64,000 nt of DNA from Picocystis sp. L7 (lineage: Eukaryota; Chlorophyta; Picocystophyceae; Picocystales; Picocystaceae), in contig QXJR01000008.1 in NCBI GenBank assembly GCA_020975725.1, positions 248,001 through 312,000 of the forward strand, read 5' to 3'. Below the pieces are notes generated by a model. It had not been told where the DNA came from. It was given only the letters and a program-made list of their open reading frames with translations, and searched no databases. Shown piece by piece: positions 1-49,440 of the stretch. The translations under genes and the position numbers were made by a program. The stretch's first letter is position 1. Every line of letters begins with the position of its first letter.

Positions 1-2019
1 GTTGGGTAAGAATGCCTTTGAATATTGACTGAAGGTCCACCAATGATTTTACTAAGTTTGCCACTCAATCCATAATAATTGGCATGCACTTGAAAGATGA
101 CAAAACACTGGCAGGTATGATACAATTAGGTGACATCACCACATAAAAGGAACTAAATTTTCAAGCAATAGATGCTTTGGGAGGGCTCGATTGATAAGCT
201 TGGAATAGGGAATGTCGGTGTCTTTGTGTAGCGCTTGGCTTTGAGAGGAAGGCCAACCTTCTCAATATCAAGGTTAGGAAAATGATACGATGATGGAATT
301 ACATTCAAAGACATCGCCTCTAGAGCGGATATAATATGGAGATATGGAGGATTGCACGTAGCTATTCGGGGAAGGTCCTTTCACTTGAGAAAGCTATGTA
401 GACTGACGGATGCACGTGTCAAAAAATATATCCATAACTAGTGAATAAAGTATAGTGTGTGCAATATGAGCATTGTTCTAACGTATTTGACTAGATAATA
501 CGAGATGAATGTGCGAAAGTAAACAGCAAGTACTTATGATCAATATTTCCTTTGCTAGTTGATATGAAACATTGATTGTGTGATTGGTGGATTGCACAAC
601 AAATTGCCTAGCAATGCTTTTATTTCATCATGTGCATTGTGTAGACCAAAGTTGTGTATATGCGTTTTAACCCTAAAAAAAATTCGTATCAATGATCACA
701 ACGAAAATCTAGTAAAGAATTTCAAAATAAGTATAAGATAGTCATGGGAAATGATGAAGCTGCAATAGAGGTTGTCGCTATCCATTTGGAAGTAAGGAAG
801 ACATTGCATTTCTCTTGTTCCCACTTGTAGTTTGTCGTTTTGTCCCCCAATCCAATGTATTTGAAATGACTCAACTTAGAATATTCTAGTGATCGGGCTA
901 CCATGATTGAATGGTTTTATCTTCGGCAAAGAAGTCCACTTGCTAAAAGTCAAGTGAAGCTTGTTTGTAGCAAAGCCTCGTGGGTTAAGGTTTTGTCCTA
1001 CACCTCTCTATTGCTTTTGCTAAGTGCTACACCTTGAATTCCGACAGTGCACAATGTGTGGCAGTTTGACCTCCCGTGGATTTGTAAGAGCAGTCCTTGA
1101 TGTTGTTATCAATCTCTTTCATTAGCAATTGCGGACCATCTTTGCACTTCTTAACATATTTTTTGGTTGAAATTGGACAATCCCTGCTTGCACGTTGTTT
1201 AGTGGAACAATTTCACGAAAAGTAAACATTTTTGACTGTTCTTGAATCAGGCAAATCACCGAAGCGAGGAATCACCTAAGGTAGAGTCGATCGAGCACTC
1301 GTTCGTCTCAAGTTAGCAATGGTGTAATGAATGACACCCATCGTTGCTGGACATACCATTGTGAACCATCCGCATCACGACCATACCTTTCCTCTAAACA
1401 AGCTAGTTTTACGAGGTATTCTTACACCATGTGAAAGGGAAACTTCACGCATAATCAACCTTTAGCTTGACCCTTTTTTTGGATGGCTATGTGAAGCCCC
1501 AAATTCTTAGTAGCCTTTTGAAGACTTGTTCTTTTACAAGGGCATGTCAAGACATGTCTCAATCAAAGCACTTGTAGCTACTTGCCAAGGCAACTCCACA
1601 CAAAATCCTTTTGGCAGAGGGTATAACGCAATTGCAATGAACTAGGCATCGCTACATCATAAAGACATACCATATAAAACGCCTTATTTTTGGTGTGCGT
1701 ATGTAGATGCCTAGGCGCGAGTCCAATGACTTCAAGGAAGCTTGTGTCAATCACTACCACAATATATCCCATAGCCACAATGCTACATGTCGAACTCTTG
1801 AGTGTAACGGTCGTTTCTTAGAACGCTAATTCAAACAATGCTACGTTGAAGGTAACTTTGCTCGCCACAATCCTATACCACGAGCTACCAAAGTGAGCGG
1901 AGAGCAGGTCTAAGAGGCAGTTGACTTCCTCATAGAGCATAAAACCACATCCATTTCAGAGCTCCACGCTCACCTTGAAGCCACGTTTGACGACTTCGAC
2001 ATGGCCGTAGCACACCTAT
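1..2019. other. Gene-poor decayed sequence
   Basis: No reading frame longer than about 66 codons and no recognisable domain was seen on either strand. The sequence is A/T-richer than the gene blocks and full of stops. It lies directly upstream of a broken transposase and a broken Fanzor gene, so the left part of that mobile element may lie here, but I could not define a terminal repeat by eye. Confidence 0.5.
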
Positions 2020-2740
2020 AATGTGTCGCCAAGGACAACAACTTCACACACAAGCGCAACAAGAACGGACACAATCTAAAGCGGCATCACGGTGTCGACA
2101 AAGATCAAAAGGCCGACTGAGAAGGCTTTTGCCATGTTGTCACAACACATCCTTTCAACCGGATCATATCCATCGACGAAATCTTGCTTACGCCCTTCAT
2201 GTTAAGACCATACAACGGAAGAACCATGGGCAAGAATTGCGTCAAGACGACCAACGAGAATAAGGTCTTCACCAAGCATACTTTCGTCGATGGGATCATC
2301 AACTTACGATGCGTGGGTTGGCGGGAGTATAAGCAAGGTACAATGAACGCCCGGCTATTCGTCGAGTTTGTTAGAGCCATCATCGAGAGGTACCATATGG
2401 GCGACTACTTGTTCATCTTCCGCAAAGCCCGAGCTTATAAAGGCCAAGGCATCCGCAATCTGATTAAGGAGACGAGGAATACCTTTCAAAATTTGATTTC
2501 CTACAACCCGTAGACCAACGTGATCGAAATCTAGTATTAGCAATTTAAACACTACACGCGCAACTCCACGACCTAGGGCGTTGCCGGTACACGAGAGGAA
2601 TGTAGGATGTCCATCATGAAGATCAAAGCTTAGCACTACCACAACTACTTCCGGTATGCCTATCATAACTAGTATTACCCAGCCCAACAAAGATCGCGTG
2701 CCTTGATGCGGAGGCATCCCCTGAAGAACTTCAAGATCAA
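2020..2740 (+). pseudogene. Broken DDE transposase, IS630/Tc1-mariner superfamily
   Basis: One frame reads like the catalytic half of a DDE_3-type transposase. An S-I-D-E motif near 2170 matches the first catalytic Asp. It is followed by the family-typical stretch around TMNARLFVEF (about 2340-2370), where the element substitutes its own strand partner in the fold. A G-D-Y-x-x-I-F segment follows near 2400, where the second Asp and its N-A-R-x-H context should be; here it reads F-R-K-A-R and the Asp is gone. Next comes Y-N-P then N-V-I-E near 2510, corresponding to the P-x-x-N-P-I-E box, and a K-H-Y-x-R tail. Several stops interrupt the frame, so the gene is dead. It lies about 600 bp upstream of a Fanzor relic on the same strand, an arrangement known from Fanzor-carrying DNA transposons. 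The family call rests on motif order only. Confidence 0.7.
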
Positions 2741-3336
2741 TGCATGAACACTTCGGGATGAAAGTCGAATTGTGTCGGATTAGGAGGGAACGCCTTGGAC
2801 TCCCCTTGACTCCGGTCCCTCGTCAAGATATCCGCAAACACGGATGTAAAGGATTAGGCATTCCAAAAGATCCCTCAAGCATGGTGGATCAAGGAGCACT
2901 TCCCCTTCTTGGAAGGACCGAGGGTTGGACTCGAGAGACTCTTTCATTGGGTCCCCCACGACCTCTCGATGAGGATCGATCCTGTTCAACCACCTCTTCT
3001 CTCGGAGGATCCTTTAGGGGTGTTGCTAAAAAAGGAATTGCGCCTCGGATCGTTACCCAAATGAAGGAGGCCTCACTACTTGAAAAGTACGGACTACTTT
3101 TGTGAACACCTGCCCACGCACGTGCCTCTCACGTGCGCCAAGAGCCTTCTTTTCCCTTGTTCGTCCCTCCTCACCGCGTGCACCCACGCTAGCTCTACCT
3201 TGGAAGACATCTTCCTACGAAGTTTTCAGGCACAAACGCAACGAGAGCGAGACAGTGCAAGTGTCTCGGATCTCGACGGAATCCACCGCTCATTCTACTA
3301 GTACACCAAGACTGGTCGAAAGAGCGTGGTCCACCA

Positions 3337-5154
3337 CAATTATGTGGTTGTGACACTGTAGGATGCCGCACAGCGAGAAAACTGGATCATGACCCACAAG
3401 CTCCGGTTGCTCAAGTTGTACATGATCCATTGCATTGAATGCGGTATAGTTTTGCCTACAATCGACTGTATGTTCGTGACATCAATGATGAAGGTCCTAT
3501 GTGAAGAGCCCAAGCGAGGGCGACCTCCAAACGGAGAGATCTAGGGCATCAAGGACACGCTGAAAGCGTTCGACGAGGTGCGCTACAAGCCTCACTTGGC
3601 AAGGCAACTCAACTACCGCCATATGAACACAGTGCTTGACTACCGGGCGATCGACGTCATCAAAATGCACGATGACTAAATCAAGCAACGTTTCGTGGGG
3701 TACGTCGAGTGTTTTTTCAACGTATCGTGTGAGAAGAAGGCATTGATTGCGGTCATCAAGAAGCACAAGAAGACTACCACCTGCCACCTGGCGACGGTCA
3801 ACGCACTATGCGCCCATATGTGGAAGATGAAGACAGGCCTGCTGAATCCCGGCCACCCAAAAACGGCACACTCGTTGTACCATGTGTTGATCGACAAGCA
3901 GTTTTGTATTTTGTTGCCTTGAATGAAGGTTCGGAAGGAAAGCATCTACTACGCCACCAAGTACTCGCCTTAGGATTACCTTACATGTATGTTGCACATG
4001 ATGAAGATCGTTGTGGCCGGGAATGTGAGTATGAACAACACATATCCTTTAGGTAGTGAAAGCGTTCCCAAGCACTTCCGTCAAAACACGGTTTCACTGA
4101 TGAACCTATGCTTCATTGCAGATCAGGGCAAGCATAGCGTCTGCACAAGAAAGGGCACCTTGGTTAGGCACCGACGGGAAAATTGGGGCTCCTTCTTGAG
4201 GACTCATGTGAAGTGCTTCCACATGCAAGACGACATGCATGCACACACGTTCGGTCACTAGATATGGACTGCTAGTGTGAGTTGCAGCATCCTCTTGAAG
4301 CAGAGGGACTCGGTTAAAAAACGCATCAAGGGACCGCAACCCAAGAAGGGAAACGACGAGTCGTACATCGACAATGTAGAGGACTACAAACCTCTCAAGG
4401 ACAAACGGGTTGTTGCCATCGTCCCCAATATGAGCGACCTCTTCTATTGTGTGGATGGCGATACCAAGGAGCAAGCCATGTTTCGCTACACCCACGACAC
4501 ACACCGCTAGGAGACAAAGGTAGAGAAGTAGTGCGATTATCAGCAACAGCGAAAGAAAGTGGTTGTCGGTGGTAAGCGTGTGGTGGAGTGGGAAGCGGAG
4601 ATGAGCACCTACAGTCAAAAGACGATGGAATTTGTCACGTTCAAGTCGTACATAAAAAAGAACGAACCCAATGATAGGCTCACGTCGTCCTACGCCGAAT
4701 ACGTCATCCGCAAGCTTGAGCTAGAAAGCTACATGCAAGCCCAAATCACGGAAGCCCTTTTGCATGCACGCTTTCTATAGATGATTGGCAGGCTTGAGGA
4801 GACCGTATCATGATCTTCGACTTTGAACAACGTGAGCCCCGCAGGTTCATAGGGCCCATCAAGAGGTAAGGGTTGAGGACCTTGTTTTGCAAGGACGGCT
4901 AAACCGCATATCCGGTCGACGAGATCCGTACCAGTTGCCACTGCAATGCGTGTGGTGGCGAATGCAAGACGTTCAGAGAGTGCGAGAACCATAGATGGTA
5001 TCAAAGCAGCAGTGTCCTTAGGCACATACTCGTCAAGCCTTAGGGTTGCTCACGCTTGCGGAACAATGACACGTATGCCGCCTCGAAGGTCTTCAAAGTA
5101 GCGTTGATGGCGATTCGAGGGGAGGAGCATCCGGATTGGACATTTGCTTCATAG
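3337..5154 (+). pseudogene. Broken Fanzor (TnpB-like RNA-guided nuclease), copy A
   Basis: A single frame can be followed with interruptions for about 1.8 kb and carries the order of motifs expected for Fanzor, the eukaryotic homologue of TnpB. The N-terminal half (3.3-4.2 kb) is an unbroken family-like stretch around HKLRLLKLYM and LCAHMWKMKTGLLNPG. RuvC-I appears near 4410 as V-V-A-I-V-P-N-M-S-D-L, with Val where the catalytic Asp is expected; Y-C-V-D-G and F-R-Y-T-H follow. Near 4905 the frame reads V-D-E-I-R-T-S-C, then a cysteine-rich finger (CHCNACGGEC and a further Cys), then R-x-R-N-N-D-T near 5060, which keeps the RuvC-III Asp. The gene ends at the stop at 5152. Several breaks show it is inactive. 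It lies behind a DDE transposase relic on the same strand, suggesting one composite element. Family membership is a motif-based call; a profile search would settle it. Confidence 0.75.
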
Positions 5155-5156
5155 AG

Positions 5157-5179
5157 ATATCATGTTCTAGCTATGATAT
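5157..5179. repeat. Short inverted repeat just after Fanzor copy A
   Basis: Arms ATATCAT (5157-5163) and ATGATAT (5173-5179) are perfectly complementary, with a 9-nt loop. The hairpin starts 3 nt after the Fanzor stop codon. In TnpB and Fanzor systems the guide RNA overlaps or follows the 3' end of the gene, so this could be part of such a structure or an element end. A 7-bp palindrome can also arise by chance. Confidence 0.4.
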
Positions 5180-6618
5180 GATGTCACTCTCGTATTGGTA
5201 CCATAAGATACTGTAAGGATGAGGGGGTTCTTACATATCTAGGCTTTCGTCCAATACACCCGAGATGGTGGAATCACGTGAGGTCACACAAGTTGAAACT
5301 TGCAATGCAAATGAAGAAATACTCGTACAGGGGTTCCATCGTGATGATGCGAATGATGGATTGTTCGGTGGTGCGTTTTTGTCCCTAGATCGACGAATGA
5401 GTTTGGAGGGGAATTTAGGTCGCAGCAAGTGGAGGCTGATTTGCACACTCGGAGGGCCGCAACACCTACGCCAATGGTGATGAAGCTCGTCGCTTCTGGC
5501 AAAAAGCTAGGTAAATCTGTAGAAAACTAATTCTTGAACCCCTTGGAGTGTTGGGAGGATTCTTCTCTAGGTCCTATCGTAGTTTTGCCAATACTAGCTA
5601 GGAAGTATTTTACGATTCCTACAACTTATTCAAGCTCGAGATGACATTTTTATATGACAACGGCACTCAGAATGAAGTTGAGAATAAGATCACAATAAGG
5701 TCACTTGGGAGGGCTAACTTGACCGCACTCCTTGTGGCATGCACGTGAGGTAGTGAGGAAATCAACTCAAAATATTGTGGACTTCACAAGAAACAGCAAC
5801 GTTGGAATGGATTTTTGTCGGACTTAAAATGTTACTCAATCGATTTGAAACTAAGATCTGATGCTACCGTACATATCGTAACAAATTGCAAGTTGCGAGA
5901 GCTGTACCGTAAGATAACGTAAGGGCTATGGTACACATCTCTAGTCCGGACAACCTCCAATGAGCCCGAGGCTCAATCAATGGTGCTAGTTTGGTACCAC
6001 ACAACCACAATTTCCACAGGGTTGCAAAGACCCGACGTTAGGCATGTAGGACTGTCCATATCAGGCGTCTTACATACTGAATGGTTTAAGAGTGACTCTT
6101 CAATACGATTTTAAGGAATAGCAAGTCAACAGAAGGAACCGTTGAGAGTTCGTGCTAAAGCTCAGACGTAACGGTTGAAAACACACCATTTGTTGGGGGG
6201 ACTGGTATCTTTCGATGACTTCGTGAACTAGCGTGACGCAAGGGTGTTGGTTTTGTTCCTACGAACTACACATGAGTTCTTTTCCACGCTGTTGCACGAA
6301 GAAAACTTAGAGTGTAGTCCATACTAGTAGCTTGCGTGGTGATGAAACAGTCTGCACAAGTGGCTCACTCCTGGATATGATTGGCACCATGAGCGTTCTG
6401 TTGTCTTTGGATTTTATTCGGGTCTTGTTCATTCTCCAATCACTTTGGCATCACGTTGATTTTTCTAAAGAGAGTATGCAACAAAGACAACAAGTGCTAC
6501 GCTTTGTCCTTGCAGTGTAGTGTTCAGGTGTGACTAACGCAGTACTACTGGCCTTGAGGGAAATCTAAAGACGACTTACTTTCTGCAGTGGAATACTTAA
6601 ATGTGCAATCTGGACATC
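5180..6618. other. Intergenic, no gene recognised
   Basis: Only short frames (up to 72 codons) occur and none resembles a known domain. The sequence continues the A/T-rich, degraded style of 1-2 kb. The right end of the transposase/Fanzor element probably lies in the first few hundred bases, and the 3' flank of the RAB11 gene in the last hundred. Confidence 0.45.
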
Positions 6619-9695
<3,077 letters not shown>

Positions 9696-10877
9696 GTGGA
9701 AAATTCGGTCTTTGGTTTCCGACTTGGAAAGAGCAGCTGGACCATTCGTTGCCCAAAGGTGCACAGGAGACATCGACTTGCAATACGCGTAGACTGTGCA
9801 AAGATGGTGTGTGGACACTCGTGGGCAACTGTTCGTCAGCCCTGTATCTTTGCGCTTTCCTCTTATCGCAAGACCAAGCGGGCAATGCGGAAAGAGACAA
9901 GGAACCGGCGCAGTGAGTTCAGGAAGTCCACATTGAAAAGCTCGCGACTTACAGAGCAAGTGGACGATCTGAGGTTCCAAGAGTTCGTCTTGCACATTCA
10001 AAGCGAGATTTGCAAAGAGGCAGAAGAGATGGATGGGTCAGGAAAAGCTTTTGGCTTTGACAAATGGGAGCGGAGTGCAGATGACCCTAATGCAGGTTTC
10101 GGAATCACGAGGGTTATGGAAGGTGGGAACTTAATTGAAAAGGGGGCATCCAACGTTTCGATCATAAATAGCAAGCTTTCGCCGACAAGAGCCAAAATGA
10201 TGAGTTCGAGAGGACGCGAAGTAAATCCTGAAGGTGGGGATTCGTACTTTGCTGCAGCCATGTCTTTGGTCTTTCATCCACAGTCTCCGTGGGTCCCAAC
10301 ATTACGTGCAGATGTGAGACTCTTTCAAGTGGGAGAACAAAGGTGGTACGGCGGCGGATGTGACCTGACCCCCTCCTATCTCTTTGAGGAAGATGCATCT
10401 TCATTTCATTCCTTCTGGAAGGATTTGTGTAGCAGGCATCACAAGGAATATTACCCAATGTTCAAAACATGGTGCGATGACTACTTTTATCTGCCATCCA
10501 GGAAGGAGCATCGTGGAATAGGTGGTATTTTCTTTGATGATCTTGCAATTTCCCCGGATGGCGAAGACGCAGAGCCGTTTGTGAAGGACGTTGGTCGAAA
10601 CATACTGAATTCTTGGAGAGAAATCGCGGAAAGCAGACGTGAATTGCAATTTGATGACCAACAAAGAAACTGGCAATTATTGCGAAGGGGTAGGTATGTA
10701 GAATTCAATCTGCTCTATGATCGTGGTGTGAAGTTTGGTCTTGAAGGAGGACGTGTTGAATCGATCATGGTCAGTGCGCCTCCTTTGGTGCGTTGGAGCT
10801 ATGATGTGAACCCAGCACACAACACAGAAGAAGCAAGAATATTGGAAGTTTTGAAGCATCCAAGATCCTGGGCTTGA
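9696..10877 (+). CDS. CPOX: Coproporphyrinogen III oxidase, oxygen-dependent
   Basis: Catalyses the oxidative decarboxylation of coproporphyrinogen III to protoporphyrinogen IX in heme and chlorophyll synthesis. The reading frame is 393 residues. From about residue 90 to the end it is a full-length HemF/CPOX domain: G-F-G-I-T-R-V-x-E-G-G, F-H-P-Q-S-P-W-V-P-T-L-R-A-D-V-R, W-Y-G-G-G-C-D-L-T-P-S-Y-L, H-R-G-I-G-G-I-F-F-D-D-L, R-G-R-Y-V-E-F-N-L-L-Y-D-R-G and the C-terminal P-P-L-V-R-W. The first 85 residues are basic and poor in acids (R, K, S rich), consistent with an organelle targeting sequence, but two later Met residues could also start. It ends 31 bp from the convergent IST1 gene. No introns are seen. 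Confidence 0.95.
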   Translation: MENSVFGFRLGKSSWTIRCPKVHRRHRLAIRVDCAKMVCGHSWATVRQPCIFALSSYRKTKRAMRKETRNRRSEFRKSTLKSSRLTEQVDDLRFQEFVLHIQSEICKEAEEMDGSGKAFGFDKWERSADDPNAGFGITRVMEGGNLIEKGASNVSIINSKLSPTRAKMMSSRGREVNPEGGDSYFAAAMSLVFHPQSPWVPTLRADVRLFQVGEQRWYGGGCDLTPSYLFEEDASSFHSFWKDLCSRHHKEYYPMFKTWCDDYFYLPSRKEHRGIGGIFFDDLAISPDGEDAEPFVKDVGRNILNSWREIAESRRELQFDDQQRNWQLLRRGRYVEFNLLYDRGVKFGLEGGRVESIMVSAPPLVRWSYDVNPAHNTEEARILEVLKHPRSWA

Positions 10878-16094: not shown

Positions 16095-16847
16095 CTACAG
16101 CTTTCCTCCAGGTAACTTTGATGCTGCTTCACTGTCCAGTAACCAACAAACACTTCCGTCGTTCGGCTTCACGAGGCCTGCAGGGAATTCCGTGCTTCCC
16201 TCCTCAACTATTTTCGCAAGGACCTTTGCTTTCCCCGCACCACTTGTAACAAAAATGACGCAGGAACTGTTGTTAAGTACCGGCAAGGTGAGCGTGATCC
16301 TGCATGGTGGAGGTTTTGGAGAATCCAGAATGGCAGCAACGCTAAGTTTCTCCTCTTGTACCAGCGCGTGTCCCGGGAACAACGAAGCAGTGTGTCCATC
16401 CGGCCCCATGCCCAAGAGGATGAGATCAAAGGACGGGAACCCGTCACGAACTGGTACTTCCTTCAACTGCGCTGCATAGAGTTGCGCACACTCGTGTGGC
16501 TCCTTGGTCGGGTCGATACTGATCACATTTCCCTCGGGGATTTCCACAAGCCGAAGGAAAGCATCCCAGCATGTCTTGAAGTTACTATCTGGATGTGAAA
16601 GAGGCACACATCTTTCATCTGCAAAGAAAACACGACACCTGGCCCATTCGATTTCATTCTTGTACTCTGGTTTGGAAAGTTCAGCCAGAGCTGCGGGAAG
16701 GGAGCCACCCGACAAGGCAAGATAGAAGCATTGATTTCCGTCTACACCGCGTTCCACTTTCCACCTTTGATAGCAGTCTACCACACTCTGCGCCAAGACT
16801 CGGGCAAGTTTTTCCTTGGTAGGAGCGACCTTGATCTGCTTTTCCAT
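16095..16847 (-). CDS. PGLS: 6-phosphogluconolactonase, paralogue 2
   Basis: 250 residues, the usual length for a cytosolic lactonase. It shows the same motifs as its neighbour: L-A-L-S-G-G-S, V-F-F-A-D-E-R-C-V-P-L-S-H-P-D-S-N-F, L-L-G-M-G-P-D-G-H-T-A-S-L-F-P-G-H and R-I-T-L-T-L-P-V-L. Outside the motifs the two copies differ a lot, so the duplication is old or they came from different sources. The start is compact with no clear targeting peptide. It lies tail to tail with paralogue 1. Whether the two serve different compartments cannot be told from sequence alone. Confidence 0.93.
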   Translation of the reverse strand: MEKQIKVAPTKEKLARVLAQSVVDCYQRWKVERGVDGNQCFYLALSGGSLPAALAELSKPEYKNEIEWARCRVFFADERCVPLSHPDSNFKTCWDAFLRLVEIPEGNVISIDPTKEPHECAQLYAAQLKEVPVRDGFPSFDLILLGMGPDGHTASLFPGHALVQEEKLSVAAILDSPKPPPCRITLTLPVLNNSSCVIFVTSGAGKAKVLAKIVEEGSTEFPAGLVKPNDGSVCWLLDSEAASKLPGGKL

Positions 16848-18337
16848 CGTTGTAGTTGATCGTCGAACGTGCCGAATGCTTCGAGGATAGTTTTTCCAGC
16901 AGGTTCACCAAGGTAGTGCTCCAACCGGGTTCTTCTTCGAATTTCGTTTCGACATGCCTAGTATTGCAATCTCCTCACCGCATGCAATCGTTGAACAAAC
17001 CGAGCATCTGATGTGACAAAGCTTGCCAAAGTGTGGTTGAGCTCTGGAAATGGCTTCAGCATGGAACAAAGACTCAAAAGACGTTCCTTGAGCAGAATTA
17101 GAGGTGCGTCAATCCTCCTTTCTACTACAAGAAAACGAACAAGACCTCACACAAATTTTCGGAGGGTAAAACACGGAGCCTTTGCTCACTACAATTTCAT
17201 TCACATCGTATTTTTCCTCCCATGATGCCGTCCAATATAAAACTTCGTAGGATTACGTCGCATGGGAGTTTGCTCTTCAAATTCCTCTAAGGATATGCAC
17301 GATGAGCATATGGTAGATCGACCTCAATGTGCAAGAGGTTTCCCCCATGCGAGCGAGCAGAATGTGTTTGATGCTTTGATCAAGAGAGGAATCCTGAACT
17401 TCATTGCACCGTGTGTTGCATAAAGCAACGGCCGATGTTGCACACATATGATCATCTTGCCCATTTGGCGACTCTTGAGGTCGTGAGATGCAAGAAGGGC
17501 AAGATGTATCCGAAGGGGAACCGGTACATTCTTGACTTTGTCGAAGCTTTCCTCTTTGTGGATGCGGCACAAGTTGGTACGAGGTAGCGGGGAACAAGTT
17601 TGATGGAAGACGAATATTCCTCTGTTTCGTACATCATCCGACACGACGACGAAATCCTATCGCATGAACGGCGCACCATCGAGCATGTTGCAATACATCG
17701 TGAAGCGTGTGACGGTAAACGTTGAATTGCACGAAGCATTGAACATTTCAAGTTTGCAAGGATGGTTTCGGTCCATTGTGTGTGCGAAGAGAACCCCTCG
17801 TGCCTGTACTCCCGACCCTCCTATGGATGGATGATGGGAGTGTCCATCCACTTCGATGAACTTGCCCCATCGCGTAAAAACGCGTGGAACGAGGTTAACT
17901 ACACGTCCGATTCGACGCAGCATTCGAGACCCGGCCTTGCGCTACGGCTCGAAGAAGGAATAGCAGGAGATAAAAGAGACAAGCATCGGTTTGGTGTTGG
18001 AAAAGAGATCTTGGGAGAAAACACGGGATAGCCGAACGTGGGAGGGAGAGGCTACAAAGGAGCCGTGCTTTCGAACGGCGTCGTGTGGCGGGAAATTGGG
18101 ACGCACACCCTACATCGGCTCGGAACGTCGTTACATCGGTTGATTTGACATCAGAGGATTCGCTTCCACTCTGAATCGGACCATGAGCTCTCCGATTCGT
18201 TACTCGAACTGCCGCTCATCTGCTGAAGGAGGAAAGGCCAAGGTAACGTCGGCGATTCACCGCCATCGTCGGAACCATCCGATGCAACCATTCCTGGCCC
18301 TCGGCAGCGACTGACAATAGCATCGCGAACCACGGCC
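16848..18337. other. Intergenic, no gene recognised
   Basis: About 1.5 kb. A plus frame between about 17430 and 18030 is open for long stretches, but it is broken and no domain is recognisable; the minus-strand frames there (up to 106 codons) look like shadows. The left end is the promoter of lactonase 2; the right end, from about 18040, is G/C-richer and probably the promoter of the next gene. The middle may be an old decayed insertion. Confidence 0.4.
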
Positions 18338-22046: not shown

Positions 22047-25034
22047 TCAACCGTTTGAGGGAGATCCGAGGGGATCCTCTTCCTCCCTCGCCTTGTCTGG
22101 GGATCGATCTCGGGTGATCCCCGCCACGGCCTCCCGGATGCGTTTCGAACGGATCTGGGCGAACCGTTCTTTGAAGCTGTAGAAGGCGTCCAATCGGGTC
22201 TGTACGTAAGACTCCCGTTGGGAAGCCAGTACGGGTCCCAATTGGGCTTGGGCTTGACTGGGTTCCATCCCCAGTTGGTGCAGGCAGAAACGCATCAACA
22301 AGGCCTCGTCGGGAGGTCCCCAACGGAAACGCTCCCGTCCTTGTTCCACGTGTGGATGGGTGTACGCCTGCACCACCGATTCGCTAGGAAAGGAAGGATG
22401 AACCTCCCAATTGCGACGCAAACCGCCGTGCTTCCGATGGAACGAACGTTGGACGTCCGTGTGCAAGACACGCTGGACACCCGGCAAGAAACCTTCCAAG
22501 TCCGGAGTCTCCACCCACTCCCGAAAGTCGTACAAACCATCCAAACCTGGAAAGGCATGGACGATCTCGATCGCATTCACGATGCCCACACCAGTGATGC
22601 CTTCCGTGTAGTCGCTACCAAGCAAAAGAGCCAAATGGATGAGCTTCTCTCGATCCAAACCAAGCTCCTTGTGTATAATGGACGCTTGGTATTCCTCCAC
22701 GTACTTTCGCTCCTCAAACATGTTACGGTAAACACACTGCCCACCGAACAAAAACACATCGCTGTCGTCCGTCACCACACCATCAACCAGGCCCTGCTCA
22801 TTGAGCCAAGCACACTGTGCTTCGGCTTCCATAGGAGCAATGATGTACGGTATGCCAAAGATCGCCAGCAACTGCATCACATCCTGGAACATGTCCTTTG
22901 TTGGCGTTTCCGATGCAATCCCAGCCGCACGCTTGGCATCCTTAAACTCGCCCTTCTCCATATCGTCGAATTCGCCTGACAATGCGGCTGCTGTCTCCTC
23001 TTCTTTACCTGCCACAGAAGGGACGTCTCGAATGTCTGGAAGGGGAGCCCCATGCCTAGAAACTAGTCTCTCACTGTCATTCACTTGTGTCAAGGGGGCG
23101 CTGGTAGACGGGGTCTCCTCATCTTCTGGAATTCTGCGCACGGCAGAAGCCTGGCAAGGCACATTACCAATACTTGTCCCTCTGAAATTGCCACCTGGTG
23201 GTTGAGAAGGGCTGTCTCTTTTGATACTGCCTTCAAGTTCATCTTTCGTAACAGACATCACGCTTCCTTCATTGACGCCATTCTCTTTCAAACCTACATC
23301 CACATTGATTGGCGCTGGCAACACTTGACTCTTGTGTGAAGCAAGCATTGCAGATTGTCCTGTGTGAACTTCTTGACTTTGTTGAGAATTTTGGCTTTGC
23401 CGTGATGGCTTGCTTCCGTTTTCCATTTCCTTGCTTGTACTGGGATGACCAACCGCATGCTCGAATCGCCCAGGTACCAGGGCGTTAAATTGTGTACTAG
23501 GAGGAAGTTTTTCCTGGTCTTGTGACAGCACTGTATCTGCATCTTGCCACTCGAATCCCTCATCATCTGCAGCATTAATCATCGTATTGGTGTGTTGCCT
23601 GTCCTGAAGGCTCAATTTCAGAGCAAGCTCTAGTTCTTTATCTTCATCATCGTCCTCCACAGTCTGCTCTTCTTCTTGGACAGCCCACTCACTCAACTTA
23701 CGCCCCATCTTGAAGCCATGGGCGAGGCTCCAAAACTTTTGTCTGGTTGCTGCTCTTTCTCTCCAATTGCTTGGTACCTGTAGCTGGGGCTTCTCAGAAG
23801 GGCTATCATCCAGACCATCATCCTCAAAAGCTTCCCCAAACAGATCATCTATGGCGGCAGTATCCTCTTTCGATGCATCTAGGTCAATTTCTACAGCAGA
23901 CTCGCAAAGGGCTGCTCCTTCAATGAAGGGCCTTGACCCACCTGTGTCATAATCAATGGTATTTCCATCCACGTCCTTGGGAGCATCGTGAAAAGGTGTC
24001 CTTTTCACCTGCTGCAACCATGGTGGGACATCTGTTGGTGAAAGAAGAGCACGCTTCTTGGGATTTTGCTCTGCATATGTATCTTCGATACTCTTCTTCC
24101 GCTTTGAAGGAGATCTCTTGGCAGGTACTTTGGGAGCTGTTTGGAGTATATATTCGCGCCCTGCCTCTGTCATGATTGGTTTACCGGCACTGCTCTGGTC
24201 AGGCTGAGCTTCGGCATTGATAACCCCTCTTATATCCTCGATCTTTTGCTTAAATTGGGTGCTTTTCAGGTATGCTGATATCTGCATCGAAGAAAAGTCG
24301 GAAGGGTCTTGTGCTAGAGTATACTGTTCTCTGTTGGCAATGTTTTGCTTTTCCCTCATCTTGAGCAGGACATCAAATTGCATTGACGGTGGCAGCGCAC
24401 TCAGTGCTTGGGCGTCCATGTCTGCGATATTGTCAGGAAGGACCACCGATTCATCCTCAAGATGGTCACCGTCCATGCCAGAGGGAGTCGTCTCTGCATG
24501 TTCGGCATCGATCTCATCACAGCTTAAGTCTGAAGCAACAGCTTGCTTCCCCTTGTCCACTTTCATAGGGTGCAAGTTATTTTCAGGTTCCATCGTTTCA
24601 AGTTTCTCACCTTTGCCTGAATGCATTGAGGATCCCTTGCATGCCTCCGAGGTATGCCTTGACAAGGCAAGAGCGGCAGATCTCTGCTTCTTCAGATGGT
24701 TCAGGAGAAGTTTTTCAGCAACCCGTTTCAATTTTGCTTCTTGTACTTCTCTCCTCCGCCGCCGTTCTGCTACTGTTCTCTTCTTCAGAGCAGGAGTTCC
24801 TCCATCAAAGACAAAGACCGGTTTGATCTTGTGGAATAGCATCTTGCAGATCCTCCTGAAGAACCCAAGCAGGTGGGCGTTTTTTATCATTTCACCGCGA
24901 TCATCTCTCATTGCCTTGATGAATTGGGTGATCCATATGGAAGCATCAACTGCCAGTATCTTGCCTGTGAGAAGTTCCACGTTCAATCGTCTTCCGGATG
25001 GCTCCAACAGCTGCCAAAGTCCATGAACTCCCAT
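22047..25034 (-). CDS. ERCC5: XPG-type structure-specific endonuclease
   Basis: 995 residues, close to the length of XPG/Rad2 proteins; makes the 3' incision in nucleotide excision repair. The N-region begins M-G-V-H-G-L-W-Q-L-L and keeps D-A-S-I-W and V-F-V-F-D-G-G. A long, acidic, low-complexity spacer follows (about residues 110-680). The I-region has P-Y-I-I-A-P-M-E-A-E-A-Q-C, V-V-T-D-D-S-D-V-F-L-F-G (about residue 753) and L-L-G-S-D-Y-T-E-G, all catalytic acids present. After the helix-hairpin-helix comes Q-T-R-L-D-A-F-Y near residue 945, a fitting PCNA-binding PIP box. The long spacer and PIP box separate it from FEN1 and EXO1. No introns. Neighbours on the same strand are NAA40 (96 nt) and BolA (205 nt). 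Confidence 0.95.
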   Translation of the reverse strand: MGVHGLWQLLEPSGRRLNVELLTGKILAVDASIWITQFIKAMRDDRGEMIKNAHLLGFFRRICKMLFHKIKPVFVFDGGTPALKKRTVAERRRRREVQEAKLKRVAEKLLLNHLKKQRSAALALSRHTSEACKGSSMHSGKGEKLETMEPENNLHPMKVDKGKQAVASDLSCDEIDAEHAETTPSGMDGDHLEDESVVLPDNIADMDAQALSALPPSMQFDVLLKMREKQNIANREQYTLAQDPSDFSSMQISAYLKSTQFKQKIEDIRGVINAEAQPDQSSAGKPIMTEAGREYILQTAPKVPAKRSPSKRKKSIEDTYAEQNPKKRALLSPTDVPPWLQQVKRTPFHDAPKDVDGNTIDYDTGGSRPFIEGAALCESAVEIDLDASKEDTAAIDDLFGEAFEDDGLDDSPSEKPQLQVPSNWRERAATRQKFWSLAHGFKMGRKLSEWAVQEEEQTVEDDDEDKELELALKLSLQDRQHTNTMINAADDEGFEWQDADTVLSQDQEKLPPSTQFNALVPGRFEHAVGHPSTSKEMENGSKPSRQSQNSQQSQEVHTGQSAMLASHKSQVLPAPINVDVGLKENGVNEGSVMSVTKDELEGSIKRDSPSQPPGGNFRGTSIGNVPCQASAVRRIPEDEETPSTSAPLTQVNDSERLVSRHGAPLPDIRDVPSVAGKEEETAAALSGEFDDMEKGEFKDAKRAAGIASETPTKDMFQDVMQLLAIFGIPYIIAPMEAEAQCAWLNEQGLVDGVVTDDSDVFLFGGQCVYRNMFEERKYVEEYQASIIHKELGLDREKLIHLALLLGSDYTEGITGVGIVNAIEIVHAFPGLDGLYDFREWVETPDLEGFLPGVQRVLHTDVQRSFHRKHGGLRRNWEVHPSFPSESVVQAYTHPHVEQGRERFRWGPPDEALLMRFCLHQLGMEPSQAQAQLGPVLASQRESYVQTRLDAFYSFKERFAQIRSKRIREAVAGITRDRSPDKAREEEDPLGSPSNG

Positions 25035-30168: not shown

Positions 30169-31686
30169 GCCTTCTTCGATTGTGTTCCTTGCGTATGCTT
30201 ACATTCCTTTCGAGTGGACACGATTCTATCCCCCAGGTGATCCCCTTCAACCGTCCAATCGAAAGGGACCAACTGGACAGTGGGGTAAGAACGAGGTGGA
30301 TGTCCAAACCGGATCAGTCAGAAGGAAAGGTTAGGCAGCGAAGTCAATCAAGGCACGATGCCGAAATGATGGGTTGTCTTGAGCAACATTGGGGACAGGT
30401 TGTGCGTAACCTCGACGCCGTGTCTATAGTGAACCATTTTGAGGCCGAAGGTCGTGGAGGGACAACATACCTTGCCGTCATGTACCACATCGTCAGAAAC
30501 GTTCCTTCAACAAAACCATGTTCCAACAAATATGCATCGTCCCCGCCTATGCTAATGCTTTGCCCATTCGTTGGATTTACCGCCTTCCGCATACCGAGTG
30601 TAAAGAAATGAGGTAGTAAAGGGTCTCGTTCACCAAGTGGCTTTTTGAGGAAGCTTGTTTGCCTTACGCGGAGGAAATGATGGGTGCCTATGTCTCGTAT
30701 ACTTGACATGCAAATATGTTGTGTGAGCACGGGTGACATTACTACATGATTACAAGTTAAGTATATTTTGTCATTCACCCTATTGGACTCACTTCGTGTC
30801 GAATCGAGTAACTTGTACTTGGGAATCACACTAGGAGCGTGGATTCAAGTTTGGTCTCATAGAGAATCTACACGACCTGGTTTTCACCCAAAAGCCATGA
30901 CGGAAGGGTATGCAAAAACCATTTTACGAGATTATACGCCTTGGCAACACTTCCATATCAATCGTGTTTGTTGTCGCGCCCTCGCCAAGGATGCTCTTTA
31001 TAGCATGACGTTGCAACATTTGATACCCATTGAGAATGGGTAGATATGCGTGTAACGTCTACTTGGCTACTATCACACCGAATTGAATGCGACTTTGAAG
31101 CATCTTACGACATGCGGTGCGTGTATGGAAGCAACGTTGTTTGTTGATGGACTTCTTCATATGTTACGAGTGGACTTCCTATTCGTTTGTAAGGATGATT
31201 CCGTCTCGCCGACGGAGGTTGCATCTTCCTCTAACGTGGACGCAATGTTCGGGCGGGCACACCGAAGAGTGTTCGAGTTTTTTACCCGCATCGCACCACA
31301 GGTTACCAAATTCTCACACTTCCCAACGTAAATCCACGTCTCAAATGGACGGCCTCGATACAATCCGATGGGACTTTTCCTTGTCTGGGTGTCCTTGATG
31401 CACGCCCGTCTGCTCTCCCCTACATGGGGGTCCTTGAACCAAGGCATCCACATGCCTCATTGTCGTGACCAGGGAAGGTGCGACGGACGTGGTTGGAGCG
31501 TCGGAAGAGAAGTCCGTCGCCACGTTTGGACGTCGTCCGGATCGAAGGGTGCTGGATCGGAGACATGTGTCTCGGTAGATCTGATCACCAGCGTAAGTAC
31601 TGGGAAAGGCTCTAGGGGAACGAAACTGCACCCAGTGGCGCAAGCCTGCGTGTGCAATCACGAAGGTGCTTTGGGGACCTGCGAGG
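30169..31686. other. Intergenic, no gene recognised
   Basis: 1.5 kb between head-to-head genes. The first 150 bp and last 250 bp are G/C-rich promoter-like sequence. The A/T-richer middle (about 30340-31330) has long but broken frames on both strands (up to 161 codons) with no recognised motif; it may be a decayed insertion. Confidence 0.4.
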
Positions 31687-37185: not shown

Positions 37186-37949
37186 CTAGTCTCAGCTAAT
37201 TCTTAATATCCTCTTGTGATGTGCGGTACAAGAATGTACTTCTTGTGTTATCCCTGCAGTTCAAAATTCTTTGTACCCCTACAGAAAGTTAAGGGTTGTG
37301 TTGCTCCAGGGTTTTGGGTGGGCCACGTAGCACCGAGGGGAGGGATCTTCGCAAGCGTTTTCGACGCTCAAAAGGTCCGATTTCGAGTGCTAAAAAAAAA
37401 GAGTTAGCGCTTTCGAGCCTACCCGGACGGTTAGTGAAGCGTTGGGGGCGAACGCGCGACAGATCGTGACGTTCGGGCGGAGCTTCAGTGGCGAGATCGG
37501 CGGTCCAGTCTCCCTGCTGCTACCACTCAGCACGCGTCCTGGGGCAACTGGCGGCTGGGGGGGGTCTGGAAGCTCCGGTGGGTTGGCGTCTGAAAACATC
37601 CCCCGAACTGACAATAGAGCTCACAGACATTCGACTTCGAAGTTGTCCACAGGTTCAAACCAGCTCTCGTTCGGGTCGAATCCTACTGTTGAATGGAAGA
37701 CATGGTGCCTTTCGATCGGGGTGAAGAGGACGGAAAAGCAGGAAGGAAGATTTGAGGCGAAAAGCCCAGTCGACAGCAATTACTACCAGCCAACTAAATA
37801 ATGGGACACTTTGATACGTCGTTCCTTCAGTCGATGCATACACAGGCAAAATATATTGGAACACCTTCACCTGTGCACCAACATTTGGAAACGTTTGTAG
37901 CTACGGTATATGTCTTATAACTGAACAATCACCTAAGGACGAAACGTGT
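37186..37949. other. Spacer before Fanzor copy B
   Basis: Mixed sequence with a frame of 119 codons (37442-37801) that lacks a recognisable domain. The left part is the promoter of the Tudor-like gene. The end of the Fanzor-bearing element may lie within it. Confidence 0.4.
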
Positions 37950-39620
37950 TTGAGTACCATGGACCCCGACGGCGGTTTGAAAACGCCGATCGGTGAAAAG
38001 AGGAAACGTCCCGATTGCTCTCGAAGGATCGAAGATCGGAAGACCGTGCAAGAAGCCATGGTGAAGTGCGCGTTTAACGGTCTACTGCGCGGAGATGGAC
38101 CGTCCAAAGAAAGCGTGAGACGAGCCGTTCAAAATCGGGTCACGGCTATTCCAAACACATGCACTTGGCTAGCATGTCTTTCAACCTGTTGCCTCGGGAA
38201 ACCTTCCGCGACGTAGGCACGAGCGAATTGGGCGACGCATACACTTTCCGAATATTCGATCAAACGATCCATCGTCATTTGAAGTCGGACATGAACAGAA
38301 CGCACAAAACATTCGTGGAGATTGTCCCGGTCAAAAACCAACAACCCGATCTCTGCGTCATGCTGGACGCGTGCGAACGGTACATGGGCGGTAGCAAACT
38401 TTACTCGTTCGGTGCCGTCAAGTTCCTGACCAACCTCAAAAACCACTACGTGGCGGGGTTGACGCGTTGGATCAAACGTTGGGTCTACTCCTCGACGGGC
38501 AAGAACGCGGTCTTTGTCCACCGCCACCTCAAGACGCATTCAGAAGGTCGGATGTTTGACCTTGCACCGCTCTTTCGAGTCCGAAACAAAATCGCGAGCT
38601 TCGACACCAACGTGTAGCACGGGTGTTTCGAGAATTGGGATGGGCAAATGCCGATCACCCCTCCTTCGGCGAGATGAGCAAACAACATTGGTCCTCCGTG
38701 TTGGACGTAGACGAGGTGTGTGAGAGAGACGTGAAATTCACGCACACGGTGGAAATTGATGGTACGCCCGTGTGCGTTCATTTCAAACGACCCAAAAAAG
38801 CGCACGCAAAACCTGTTGGATATTCCGTCCTCGTACGTTTGGGACCGAACGACGTGGGCGTGGGGATCGATCCGGGTAGGTCGAACATCTTGTATTGCGT
38901 TTGGCATGACGGATGCGACCACCGCTCGATGGTCCTTACGAGACGACGGTACTACATGGAATCGGGAATCAGCCGGGCCAAGCGAAAAGTCGTCGCCTAG
39001 CAATCGCGAGAGGACGTGCAGACGGCATCGGAAACGCTGTCCCAAACCTCGAGCAAGGGTGTTGATCTCGAGGCGTTCCTTCGGTGCTTGCAAGCAATGA
39101 AATATACCTACGAATGCCTTTGGTCGGTCTACACGCGACGCAAATGGGCCGATCAAGCGTTGCTTTTGTACAAAGGAAAAAACGCACGTTTGCTAAATTT
39201 TTGGATCGCATGCATGCGGCGTTCGGAAAGGACAAGACGCTCAAAGTGTCCTATGGGTCGGCAAAATTCGCACCCGGTGGAAAGGGGGAGGTGTGCGTGC
39301 CGACAAGTCGCGCTACCAAGGAGTGCGCGTACCGTTTTCGCATTCGTCGCACGGACGAGTTGCAAACAATAGTAGTCCACCACGAAACGCTCGCGATCAT
39401 GAAAGGGGTCACGAGACTCGATACGAAACGAGAGGTCGGAGGCTTGCAATGGTGTTGTTCCACCAATTAAACGAATTGCAAGTTGGTCAATTGGGGTCAA
39501 AACGCCGCGATCAACATTTTCAATTGCATGCTTCGAAAGCGACCCAACTTGCTTTGTCGGTCAAACAAAGATGCAGTTTCGAACCGGATCGGACGTTGGA
39601 TACCCAAATGTGAAAAATGA
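37950..39620 (+). pseudogene. Broken Fanzor (TnpB-like nuclease), copy B
   Basis: The frame can be followed through several breaks from M-S-T-M-D-P-D-G-G to a stop at 39618. The N-terminal part contains S-F-N-L-L-P-R-E-T and F-D-Q-T-I-H-R-H-L, typical of the family's alpha-helical half. A beta block (F-T-H-T-V-E-I-D-G-T-P-V-C-V-H-F-K-R-P) leads to RuvC-I V-G-I-D-P-G-R-S-N with the Asp present. RuvC-II is Y-G-S-A-K-F-A near 39250, followed by V-P-T-S-R-A and T-D-E-L-Q-T-I-V-V-H. A reduced finger keeps W-C-C-S-T. RuvC-III reads V-N-W-G-Q-N-A-A-I-N-I, where Gly replaces the usual Asp. Length fits a 550-residue nuclease. Multiple breaks show it is dead. No transposase gene was found beside it. 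Confidence 0.82.
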
Positions 39621-39674
39621 CGTCGTGGATGGGGAATGGAAGCATAGAAGGCTTTCCCGATGCAAAGTTCACGG

Positions 39675-39724
39675 TGTAGGCACATCGAACCCATGGCTGG
39701 CGGATTTTGGGAAACGTGCCTACA
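39675..39724. repeat. Inverted repeat after Fanzor copy B
   Basis: Arms TGTAGGCAC (39675-39683) and GTGCCTACA (39716-39724) pair perfectly over 9 bp, and CCCA/TGGG (39690-39693 with 39708-39711) can extend the stem. It starts 55 nt after the Fanzor stop. It could be part of an RNA scaffold or an element end. Confidence 0.5.
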
Positions 39725-42700
39725 TTTCCCCGTCATTCCATGCACGAAAGGTCAAGGCAAAGGTGTCCCATTATTGCCTTGGCCGAATGTACTACCAACG
39801 AACCTGACCTTCCTTCTGAACTACGCCTTTTCTCTCTTTCCATGCTTAAGCAAAGAATACTTTTTCAGATGGTCGGAGGTGAAAAAGGAGGATTTGGCAA
39901 CACAAGTTGTAATGTCACCTCACACTCGGCCAACCGAATTGTGGAACACATTGCTTCAACAAGCCAGCTCCAGGTATAGGGGGTCGAATTACACGGCTAA
40001 AGGGTTGAAAGAGCAACCGTAAGCATCCCTTACCCTACATATAGGCAGTCCAACACGATCAACAATCCATGGGGTCGCCTAGCAGCCCCCATGGCAGTCC
40101 GCATTCACTTATTCTCACCAACGGATGTGCTTTGGGGCCTACCTTGCGTAGCAATGCAACACAACTCCAACACCCTCACCGACAAGGCCAAGCACCTCCT
40201 AACGTTAAGACTAGTATGAAGGTCACAATTCACGAACTTGCCATAGTTGGTGGATTCGTACCACATCAAGCCCTTGACCGTAACCGCTTTTTAGCTTTCT
40301 CCAAACTTGGTTGATCACCATGCCATCGCTTGCGTCACCATGATTGATCCGATATCGTCCACAATTTAGTCTTAAAGCGTTTGGCACGCGTTGAATGCTT
40401 TGGTTATCGGCAATGTCACTTCACCTCGATCGCCAGTGTAAAGTTTGCCGTGCCATTGGCCGCGAAGAGAAGCGTGCCCTTTGTTGCAAGCGATGTAGTG
40501 TTTGCGACACTTTCTAGGAAGGTCGCAAATGCCCTCATCTCGCTGCCGTACATCCGCAACCATTGGCGTGCCCATCGCAGCTTCGGGCACTCCTCTCAAA
40601 ACATGTCATGCTTGCCAAAACTTAGCATCCGAGAATCGTTGATGCGCCTCAACAATCGAGCTCTATGTATTGGCACTTGACTACTATTCCGGAGCTTGCC
40701 ACAAGGTACCTTGCTACGCTTCCGATTGTGGGCTCGCTTTTAGGATTGTGCTCTTTACGAGATACCTCTTCCCCATCGGCTTTTAGCTCTTGCTCGTTGT
40801 TAGGAGCGAGCTTTCTAGTTCCTGAGCTTCACTGACGTGAAGTTGACATGGAGGTCGAGGAGGCGCTTGGAAGGCGGCTCGTCCTTCAAGGTCAAGATCA
40901 ACTTAATGACAAAGTGAGGGCGGGGGGGAGTTAAGTGCTTCTGCCGATTGGGGTTGAACCATCCATTGAAGGGGTCCAATGGATGAGGAACAAATAGAGG
41001 GTGTTGGTTCCTAACACTCCTCCCGTTGGACATCTTTAGTGCCATGGAGAAAATGTTTGTGCATGTAGGGGCCTTCCAAAGAATAACATACTCGTCCAAC
41101 GTGTCCGTTGGCACACTCCTAGTCATGGGCGCTGCCGCAACGAAAGTTTGATCATCTATGGATTTCTTGATCCAAATTGAATCCATACATATGCTTATGC
41201 CGTTGTTGTCCACCATCTGGGTGAACTCTGGCCCATGCCGCACAACTTGTCGATTGTGAAGGTCGGTGTCCACTGCTTAGCCGCCATGCCGCGCCCACAG
41301 AGGTTGGAGAGCAAAAGGGGGGATTCCTAAGTGAGACCCCATCATTCAAAATCAAGTCCCACGTGTGCCAACTTAGCGTGTGCCACCAATCATGCCGCTG
41401 CCAAGCCCACATTCTGAAGATCTCCTCTTACTTCTTGTCTAACTTGAGCGACAACACAAAAGGTAACACCTCGTTTCGGATGCATAGTACATTCACTACT
41501 ATCGTCTTCCTAGCAATCACAAAGCATCGATACACAATGTCAGAAAGGAACAACGACGTAGGCATATTGCCTCGTATCTTTTCCAACACTAACCCTAAGG
41601 GATGTATAAATATGTCATATCGCAATGGCGACGTCACGGAAATGCTTAATACTATTGTTCGGTAAAAGATTGGGGGCAACTCTATGTCAATGAATTTGCT
41701 GAAAAAGGTTTCAACTCCTCGTGAAGCTAGAAACGTCTTAGGATCAAGAGAGTTCAAAACATATTCGATTTTAATCGACATTTTCGCGGTAAATTTCGTA
41801 ACGTATGTCCGGGGTGTACATAGGAAGTAGGACTTCGACGCATGAGCTGTCGTTCTTGAGAGAATAAACCAGCCTCACTCGTGCCTATGTACACGCTTAG
41901 TTCAAGTTTCTTATTGAGCGATAGTTGTCCATTCATGCAAGGTGTAGGAGCCGCTCACGGTGGTTAGTTCTTGTCGTAGGGAAAAATACCCAACTTGAGG
42001 ACTTCAACCGCATGTGCACTGAAGGGCACGGTAAGAAATATTTTTTTTTATTTTTTTTCATGAAGACACATGGTTGTGTGAGACACCTTGGTATTAGGAC
42101 TTACTTTTTTTTCAAGCGAGCAACATTCATTCGAGTGGCAAGAGTAATGGATAACAAGGAGGATTTCATTGTTGGACCCTATCGTCGTGTTGGTCGTTTG
42201 ATGGCGGTTGGTCCAAGAAATAGACAGACCGGCGCCATTCTAGAGGATGGGTGCAAAGATATCTAGAATTGGAGGACGATGAGAGAATAAATCGCCATGA
42301 AGTCCGGCCTTAGGCGAAGACAAATCAAGCACGGACAACGAATTCATATGGTAAAAAACGGCTTGTTAATGTCCGAAAGCAGCAAGGTATGTTGAAGATG
42401 AAGGTTAGTGGACTAGGGCGTCTCTAGCGAAGGAGTTCCTTTAACGAGGTTCAACCATCGGTTACCAGAGATCCCCACGTCATCATAAAGGTGCCATCTC
42501 GTACATTCATGGCCATGAAACCTTAAAATGGTCTCCTAATGCTCGGTAGCATGGTAGCGTTTGTCCCTTGATTAGCAAATCTAGGACAAGTATGTCATGC
42601 TCTAAAGCTTACCCTTACTAGAGGCAATGGCATTGGCTCGTGGAGTGTACATGGTATTGATACAGGAATAGCGCCTGAAGTGATTCATCAAGTGTGGTCT

Positions 42701-47926: not shown

Positions 47927-48070
47927 AGAGAGAAGAGATGGCGGGTTGCTATTGGGGTCGTTGGGCAACCCAATGGATTGGTGTGTGCGTTGGGCAAATT
48001 GTGTCCGAATTGGCTCAGGAGACGCTCGCGGTTGCTTTACACACCCAATAGCGTTGTAGGTCGACAGCAT

Positions 48071-49319: not shown

Positions 49320-49440
49320 TCCGTGTGTGGGCAGCAATCTACACAGAGCCAATGGTCCCGAGGTGGCTAATATGAAATATAACCGGTGAGAGCCTGCAGG
49401 GCACATGTGATGCTGCAGCAGGACATGGTGAGACTATTTT

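What the first reader, a model, noticed from the sequence alone, without database searches (positions are those of the whole stretch)
2020..5180. Transposase plus Fanzor relic, likely one composite element
Seen: a broken DDE transposase (IS630/Tc1-mariner motif order) is followed on the same strand by a broken Fanzor gene, copy A. Known: Fanzor genes occur as passengers in eukaryotic DNA transposons, including mariner-type ones. Inference: this was one element that carried both, now long decayed. The element ends are not defined.
Basis: partly seen in the sequence, partly recalled or inferred. Interest (0 to 1): 0.8.

Follow-up and report, generated by a model that had tools for sequence, protein, structure and literature searches.

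The report
Dead algal transposase-Fanzor pair, CWG-mutated
A plant-like genome carries the wreck of a mariner-like jumping gene next to the wreck of an RNA-guided DNA-cutting enzyme (Fanzor), a pairing already known in kind, and the DNA around them has lost most of its CAG and CTG triplets, which looks like the scar of a host defence.

Summary
Both genes are real. An IS630/Tc1-mariner DDE transposase relic lies at 1815-2702 (+) (DDE_3 E 1.5e-6; IS630 model E 1.9e-8). A Fanzor1 relic follows on the same strand at 3170-5160 with one frameshift (Parasitella Fanzor1 E 2.5e-11, Spizellomyces Fanzor1 E 1.4e-8). Together they hold 24 in-frame stops. Mariner elements carrying Fanzor1 were described in 2013, so as an element this is a new member of a known kind. 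That both genes were one element is plausible, not proven: no inverted repeats beat shuffles, no second copy was detected in the window, and CWG retention shifts weakly at 3110, between the genes. The unexpected result is the decay. CAG/CTG (CWG) is depleted in 2-6513 and in other islands (Markov o/e 0.34 against 0.91); TAG, CTA, CAA and TTG are enriched, while CCG and ACG are nearly unchanged. Sixteen of 24 stops are TAG. This fits C-to-T mutation at CWG, the context that in plants needs CMT3 alone. Methylation was not measured and no sequencing reads were seen.

The parts
1815..2702 (+). Relic of an IS630/Tc1-mariner-type DDE transposase gene, one frame, 296 codons, 10 in-frame stops
   Evidence: DDE_3 E 1.5e-6; NF033545 transpos_IS630 E 1.9e-8, model 34-292 of 299; third-position GC 0.61 in this frame against 0.46 and 0.34 in the others, over 1801-2702
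2703..3169 (.). Linker between the two relics; no recognised gene
   Evidence: ORF 2740-3105 has no Pfam match at E up to 10; CWG 3 of 31
3170..4798 (+). Fanzor1 relic, first frame: N-terminal part (by frame continuity) and RuvC-I; 10 in-frame stops; the first RuvC aspartate position (4421-4423) reads Val
   Evidence: Joined search: Parasitella Fanzor1 2.5e-11, Spizellomyces Fanzor1 1.4e-8, from about 4172 on; frame and stops
4798..5160 (+). Fanzor1 relic, second frame after the frameshift: RuvC-II glutamate region and damaged zinc finger/RuvC-III; 4 in-frame stops
   Evidence: Parasitella Fanzor1 E 1e-4 on its own
2..6513 (.). CWG-depleted island that contains both relics; it may run beyond the left edge of the window
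   Evidence: 77 CWG of 645 CWG-plus-product triplets against 1771 of 4285 outside all six islands, Fisher p 7e-54; same segment in four of four HMM settings

Best explanation
The locus is the dead remnant of a Tc1/mariner (IS630-like) DNA transposon that most likely carried a Fanzor1 RNA-guided nuclease as its 3' cargo, in a green-lineage nuclear genome. In life (inferred from the families) the DDE transposase would cut the element out and paste it at TA sites, and Fanzor would use a guide RNA from the element's end to cut target DNA and so favour the element's persistence. The host then appears to have marked the whole island for silencing. Cytosines at CAG/CTG turned to T on either strand, turning CAG codons into TAG stops; ordinary mutation added the rest. 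Shown: both gene identities, order, strand, broken frames, and the CWG depletion with its products. Inferred: that both genes moved as one unit; that the CWG change comes from CMT3-like methylation followed by deamination.
For: Gene identities. Same strand, 467-bp linker without a recognised gene. Similar pyrimidine-ending codon bias: NNC fraction 0.69 in the transposase and 0.68 in the Fanzor, against 0.48-0.63 in five other window ORFs and 0.42 in a sixth reading whose span crosses stops. No GC change point between the genes; the only one in 1-6500 is at 1860. Precedent for mariner transposase plus Fanzor1. Decay: CAG/CTG is the outlier triplet, island/host ratio of Markov o/e 0.37, next lowest 0.80; CCG 225/923 in islands against 1202/4838 in host, ACG 339/1170 against 1429/4482; CAG:CAA 8:22 although AAG:AAA is 57:18, and stops TAG 16, TAA 6, TGA 2. 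In plants CAG and CTG methylation needs only CMT3 while CCG needs MET1 too (PMC5221884, passages); CMT3-like enzymes are reported in all green plants (PMC11540031, passages).
Against: No inverted repeats above shuffles; no TA duplication defined; no second copy seen. CWG retention is lower on the transposase side than on the Fanzor side (20/281 against 54/333), with a weak change point at 3110, which suggests two units or ages. Third-position GC differs a little (0.615 and 0.662) and one host gene (DRG-like) reaches 0.608, so codon bias is weak evidence for a shared origin. The IS630 model score is below its cut-off. The second catalytic Asp of the transposase is not visible. No guide-RNA-like fold stands out downstream (z -1.04). 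CAC and CAT are also somewhat lower in islands (382/646 against 1781/2674; 438/690 against 1538/2171). In 1-1800 CpG is low too, o/e 0.63. Methylation was not measured.
Confidence: 0.55

Rival explanations
1. Two independent elements: an older mariner relic and a separate, later Fanzor1 element (or Fanzor1-only mariner derivative) that landed beside it.
For: CWG retention shifts from 0.071 to 0.154 at 3110, in the linker, best single change point in 1-6000 (23 of 500 shuffles reach it); 3001-5500 keeps 38/230 against 27/358 for 1-3000 plus 5501-6000, p 0.001, boundaries chosen after seeing the data. Fanzor1-only elements with mariner ends are known (PUl-4, PMC3627910).
Against: Same strand and short linker; similar NNC codon bias; no GC break at the linker; no inverted repeats found around the Fanzor alone, 2680-3200 against 5100-6600.
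Confidence: 0.3
2. Plain neutral ageing of a composite element, with the CWG pattern a by-product of base composition or codon use.
For: Eight of 24 stops are TAA or TGA; many conserved Fanzor positions are changed in ways that CWG mutation cannot give (alignments).
Against: CWG depletion is as strong in 1-1814, where no gene was recognised (14/198), as in the transposase (6/83). Host DNA without long open frames keeps CWG (347/911), and host blocks of 281 events range 0.367-0.495. One recognised frameshift for 24 stops is few for ordinary pseudogene decay (my expectation, not computed against homologues).
Confidence: 0.07
3. Assembly artefact: 5-methylcytosine at CWG sites miscalled as T by the sequencing or base-calling method, so that the real genome still holds CWG here.
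For: The signal is confined to transposon-like islands and to one symmetrical context; the reads and method are unknown.
Against: Miscalls on both strands should also give TAA/TTA; these are hardly raised (o/e 0.65 against 0.60). Long host frames such as 995 aa at 22047-25034 are clean. The relics also have damage outside CWG.
Confidence: 0.08
4. The genes use a changed genetic code (TAG, perhaps TAA, read as an amino acid) and are not broken by those stops.
For: 16 of 24 stops are TAG and one frame stays open for long stretches if TAG is read through.
Against: CTG is lost as strongly as CAG, and the loss covers 1-1814 and the linker, where no gene was recognised; host genes end in ordinary stops; the Fanzor relic has a frameshift and an altered RuvC aspartate position.
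Confidence: 0.02

Closest known systems
Mariner elements carrying Fanzor1: PGv-1, PUl-1, and Fanzor1-only PUl-4 (Bao and Jurka 2013, PMC3627910)
   Same: Mariner-type transposase in the 5' part and Fanzor1 in the 3' part, in eukaryotes and their viruses
   Different: Here both genes are dead, ends and TA duplication are undefined, and no endonuclease gene like that of PGv-1 was recognised between them. The text read does not state strands for PGv-1.
Fanzor1 of Parasitella parasitica (PDB 9cf0) and Spizellomyces punctatus (PDB 8gkh)
   Same: RuvC-I, RuvC-II and start of the zinc-finger region align
   Different: The relic has Val at the first RuvC Asp position, stops, a frameshift and a damaged zinc finger
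CMT3-dependent CAG/CTG methylation of plant transposons (PMC5221884 passages; K. nitens CHG/CHH on silent transposons, PMC5890265 passages)
   Same: Same CWG preference with CCG lower; same kind of target
   Different: Here the record is mutational, not methylation data, and CpG in the islands is not depleted relative to host (o/e 0.99 against 0.86), unlike the CG-plus-CHG marking usual in plants
Repeat-induced point mutation (RIP) of fungi (PMC9246332 passages)
   Same: C-to-T mutation that destroys transposon genes by stops
   Different: RIP is described for fungi, mostly Ascomycota; its CpA preference is recalled, not looked up; here the context is CWG and no repeat pair was shown

Membership tests
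Tc1/mariner (IS630-like) DNA transposon | IS630/DDE_3-type transposase | tested here: met
   DDE_3 1.5e-6 at the gathering cut-off; IS630 model 1.9e-8, below its cut-off
Tc1/mariner (IS630-like) DNA transposon | Complete catalytic D-D-E/D triad | tested here: inconclusive
   By eye in the translation: first D (SIDE) and last E (VIE) are visible, the second D position is not; motif places are recalled. Decay would explain it.
Tc1/mariner (IS630-like) DNA transposon | Terminal inverted repeats | tested here: inconclusive
   Four region pairs tested; best inverted match at or near shuffle level in all four (at least 14.5% of 200 shuffles reach it). Short decayed ends could be missed.
Tc1/mariner (IS630-like) DNA transposon | TA target-site duplication | tested here: inconclusive
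   TA-flanked end pairs listed without a convincing pair; ends undefined
Fanzor1 | RuvC-type C-terminal half homologous to solved Fanzor1 proteins | tested here: met
   9cf0 2.5e-11, 8gkh 1.4e-8
Fanzor1 | Intact conserved motif (D ... [TS][TS]xx C4 zinc finger ... RD) | tested here: not met
   First D position reads Val, the second half of the zinc finger and the RD are altered: a dead descendant, not a working member
Fanzor1 | Guide RNA at the element's right end | tested here: inconclusive
   5130-5330 folds no better than shuffles, z -1.04; right end unknown
Mariner-Fanzor1 composite element | Both genes inside one pair of ends | tested here: inconclusive
   Ends not found, no second copy
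Mariner-Fanzor1 composite element | Transposase upstream, Fanzor1 downstream | tested here: met
   1815-2702 then 3170-5160, both +
Decay by CMT3-type CWG methylation | CAG/CTG lost with their C-to-T products gained, CCG spared | tested here: met
Decay by CMT3-type CWG methylation | 5mC at CWG in these islands, and a CMT gene in the genome | not testable with these tools
   No methylome; genome not held
Repeat-induced point mutation | Mutation triggered by repeated copies | not testable with these tools
   Genome not held

The most novel reading that the evidence does not exclude
A green-lineage genome defends itself with a CWG-only mutagenic process, RIP-like in effect: transposon islands, including RNA-guided Fanzor elements, are destroyed by C-to-T change at CAG/CTG while CpG and CCG in the same DNA are left alone. 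It would act through chromomethylase marking without accompanying CG methylation, or through faster, active deamination.
Probability: 0.35. Interest if true: 0.75.

Novelty: new member of a known kind. Interest (0 to 1): 0.5.

Why it matters
The pair adds a case to the known link between mariner transposases and Fanzor1, here probably in the green lineage. The larger point is the decay. A CWG-only mutation scar with sharp island borders is a sequence-only readout of where a host marked foreign DNA. It could let one map silenced transposons, and estimate how long they were exposed, in algal genomes without methylomes. It also makes a question testable: can CWG marking by itself, without CG methylation, serve as a mutational defence outside fungi?

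Tried and rejected
Inverted repeats: four region pairs aligned against shuffles, plus a list of TA-flanked pairs; nothing convincing. Repeat search in 1-10000 gave only short matches. Relatives: five scans of viral contigs for the Fanzor or transposase by peptide or degenerate pattern (with 63 a sixth, for the transposase) and one of genome contigs gave none; copy C was scanned in viral contigs and genome contigs, none. These scans need exact short peptides or patterns, so they are weak tests for decayed queries. GC segmentation gave one change point, at 1860, and so no right end. The downstream RNA fold was ordinary. A longest-run statistic for CWG islands was dropped: in 50 shuffles the mean longest run was 333 bases but one reached 5546; the Fisher contrasts are used, and the islands they test were chosen on the same data. 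Changed genetic code, plain ageing and base-calling artefact are treated as rivals. Structure prediction and fold search were not run: no relatives for an alignment.

Literature: 9 of 10 searches used. I found no paper describing CWG-only depletion in transposon islands in the listings; these listings were capped at 12-15 papers and the library holds open-licence papers only. Papers: PMC3627910 parts 1 and 2 of 7; passages only of PMC10711439, PMC10432273, PMC9861306, PMC5221884, PMC5890265, PMC9246332, PMC12344493, PMC5410703, PMC11540031.
Full report
What is there. The window is nuclear DNA of a eukaryote whose genome is not held. It has a Ras-superfamily (Rab-like) gene piece in the 6.5-7.0 kb region on the minus strand (Pfam Ras E 1.1e-13), interrupted as if by introns. 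Its uL24 ribosomal protein has its best PDB scores with entries that I recall as land-plant ribosomes; the table itself prints no species. I therefore take the host to be green-lineage, as an inference.

Transposase. The frame from about 1815 to 2702 matches DDE_3 (E 1.5e-6, at the gathering cut-off) and the IS630 family model over nearly its full length (E 1.9e-8, below that model's own cut-off). It did not match any PDB chain. By eye the first Asp and the last Glu of the triad are visible and the second Asp is not (motif places recalled). Ten stops interrupt 296 codons.

Fanzor. The frame 3170-4798 and, after one frameshift, 4798-5160 read as Fanzor1. The second piece alone hits Parasitella Fanzor1 at 1e-4. 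With the last part of the first frame joined on, Parasitella (2.5e-11) and Spizellomyces (1.4e-8) Fanzor1 are the top two hits, and the third is at 0.19. The alignment shows the RuvC-I stretch with Val at the Asp position, and the RuvC-II stretch with its Glu. The N-terminal 330 or so codons have no hit and are assigned by frame. Fourteen stops interrupt 664 codons.

One element or two. For one: order, strand, a 467-base linker with no recognised gene, a similar preference for C-ending codons (0.69 and 0.68), no GC break between the genes, and the 2013 precedent. Against: no ends, no second copy, and lower CWG retention on the transposase side (20/281 in 1-2702 against 54/333 in 3170-6513, p 0.0007) with the best change point at 3110, reached by 23 of 500 shuffles. 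I give the single-element reading about two to one over two units.

The decay signature. Codon counts in the relics (959 codons) show CAG 8 and CAA 22, although AAG is 57 and AAA 18; stops are TAG 16, TAA 6, TGA 2. Triplet counts explain this. In 1-6000 plus 37900-42400, CAG/CTG has a Markov observed/expected of 0.34, against 0.91 in 9700-37000 plus 48000-64000; the ratio, 0.37, is far from the next lowest, 0.80 (the host set still contains three small islands). The products CTA/TAG (1.34 against 0.89) and CAA/TTG (1.29 against 1.00) are raised. Part of the TAG rise is expected, because coding host DNA avoids stops; TCA/TGA also rises (0.94 against 0.72). A two-state segmentation finds six islands: 2-6513, 8239-9527, 16713-18152, 30345-31385, 37879-43135 and 54026-54940. 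Two stricter settings drop 16713-18152 and 54026-54940, and two of four settings start the second island at 8591. Outside the six islands CWG is 1771 of 4285; inside 2-6513 it is 77 of 645 (p 7e-54; islands chosen on the same data). The loss is as deep in 1-1814, where no gene was recognised (14/198), as in the transposase (6/83).

Controls. CCG (225/923 in islands, 1202/4838 in host) is unchanged; ACG (339/1170, 1429/4482) and GAC/GTC (310/1020, 1452/4362) are slightly lower; CAC (382/646, 1781/2674) and CAT (438/690, 1538/2171) are somewhat lower. Host DNA without long open frames keeps CWG (347/911), so this is not a property of all non-coding DNA. CpG o/e is 0.99 in islands and 0.86 in host, but it is 0.63 in 1-1800, so some CpG loss in that stretch is possible. 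Double products TAA/TTA are hardly raised (0.65 against 0.60), which fits one hit per site and not two-strand miscalls. The depletion is deepest in CCAGG (2 counted in islands, 0.06 of the host rate) and weakest where T flanks (TCAGT 0.64, TCAGA 0.63).

Mechanism. In plants CAG and CTG methylation needs only CMT3, while CCG also needs MET1 (PMC5221884, passages). CMT3-like enzymes are reported in streptophytes, chlorophytes and prasinophytes (PMC11540031, passages), and CHG and CHH methylation sits on silent transposons in Klebsormidium (PMC5890265, passages). Methylcytosine deaminates to T. A CMT3-like mark over these islands, followed by deamination, gives the pattern seen: CWG lost, CCG kept. 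What is unusual is that CpG in the islands is not more depleted than in host DNA. Either CG methylation was sparse there, or it was repaired. An active, RIP-like process is not excluded.

Verdict. The composite reading is plausible and ordinary in kind. The strongest new fact is the CWG scar, which accounts for much of why the genes are broken.

Noticed in passing
window 38159-39620 (+): Copy B: Fanzor-like relic of another type, recognised by motif reading only (a GIDPGRSN stretch; an altered RD region); no Pfam or useful PDB hit for the pieces tested. CAG is 0 of 6 Gln codons in the two frames counted.
   Followed up: partly
window 47190-47770 (+): Copy C: same type as B (blastp of B against C E 1e-15); no relatives in viral contigs or genome contigs.
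   Followed up: partly
window 40431-40610 (-): A fourth fragment of the B/C type, on the opposite strand, found by tblastn with copy C (E 2e-7).
   Followed up: no
window 8239-9527, 16713-18152, 30345-31385, 54026-54940: Further CWG-depleted islands with low open-frame coverage (0.18, 0.13, 0.53, 0.05) and no recognised content; one ORF tested in each of the first three gave no useful Pfam hit.
   Followed up: partly
window 37879-43135: Second large CWG island (52 of 459), holding copy B and the minus-strand fragment; four ORFs at 40818-42263 and one at 39660 gave no useful Pfam hit.
   Followed up: partly
islands 1-6000 and 37900-42400: Flank preference of the CWG loss: CCAGG 2 in islands (0.06 of host rate), while TCAGT, TCAGA, ACAGT and GCAGT keep 0.54-0.64.
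   Followed up: no
window 5230-5390 (+): A short open stretch in the same frame as the second Fanzor piece, downstream of its end; no Pfam match when searched together with that piece.
   Followed up: partly
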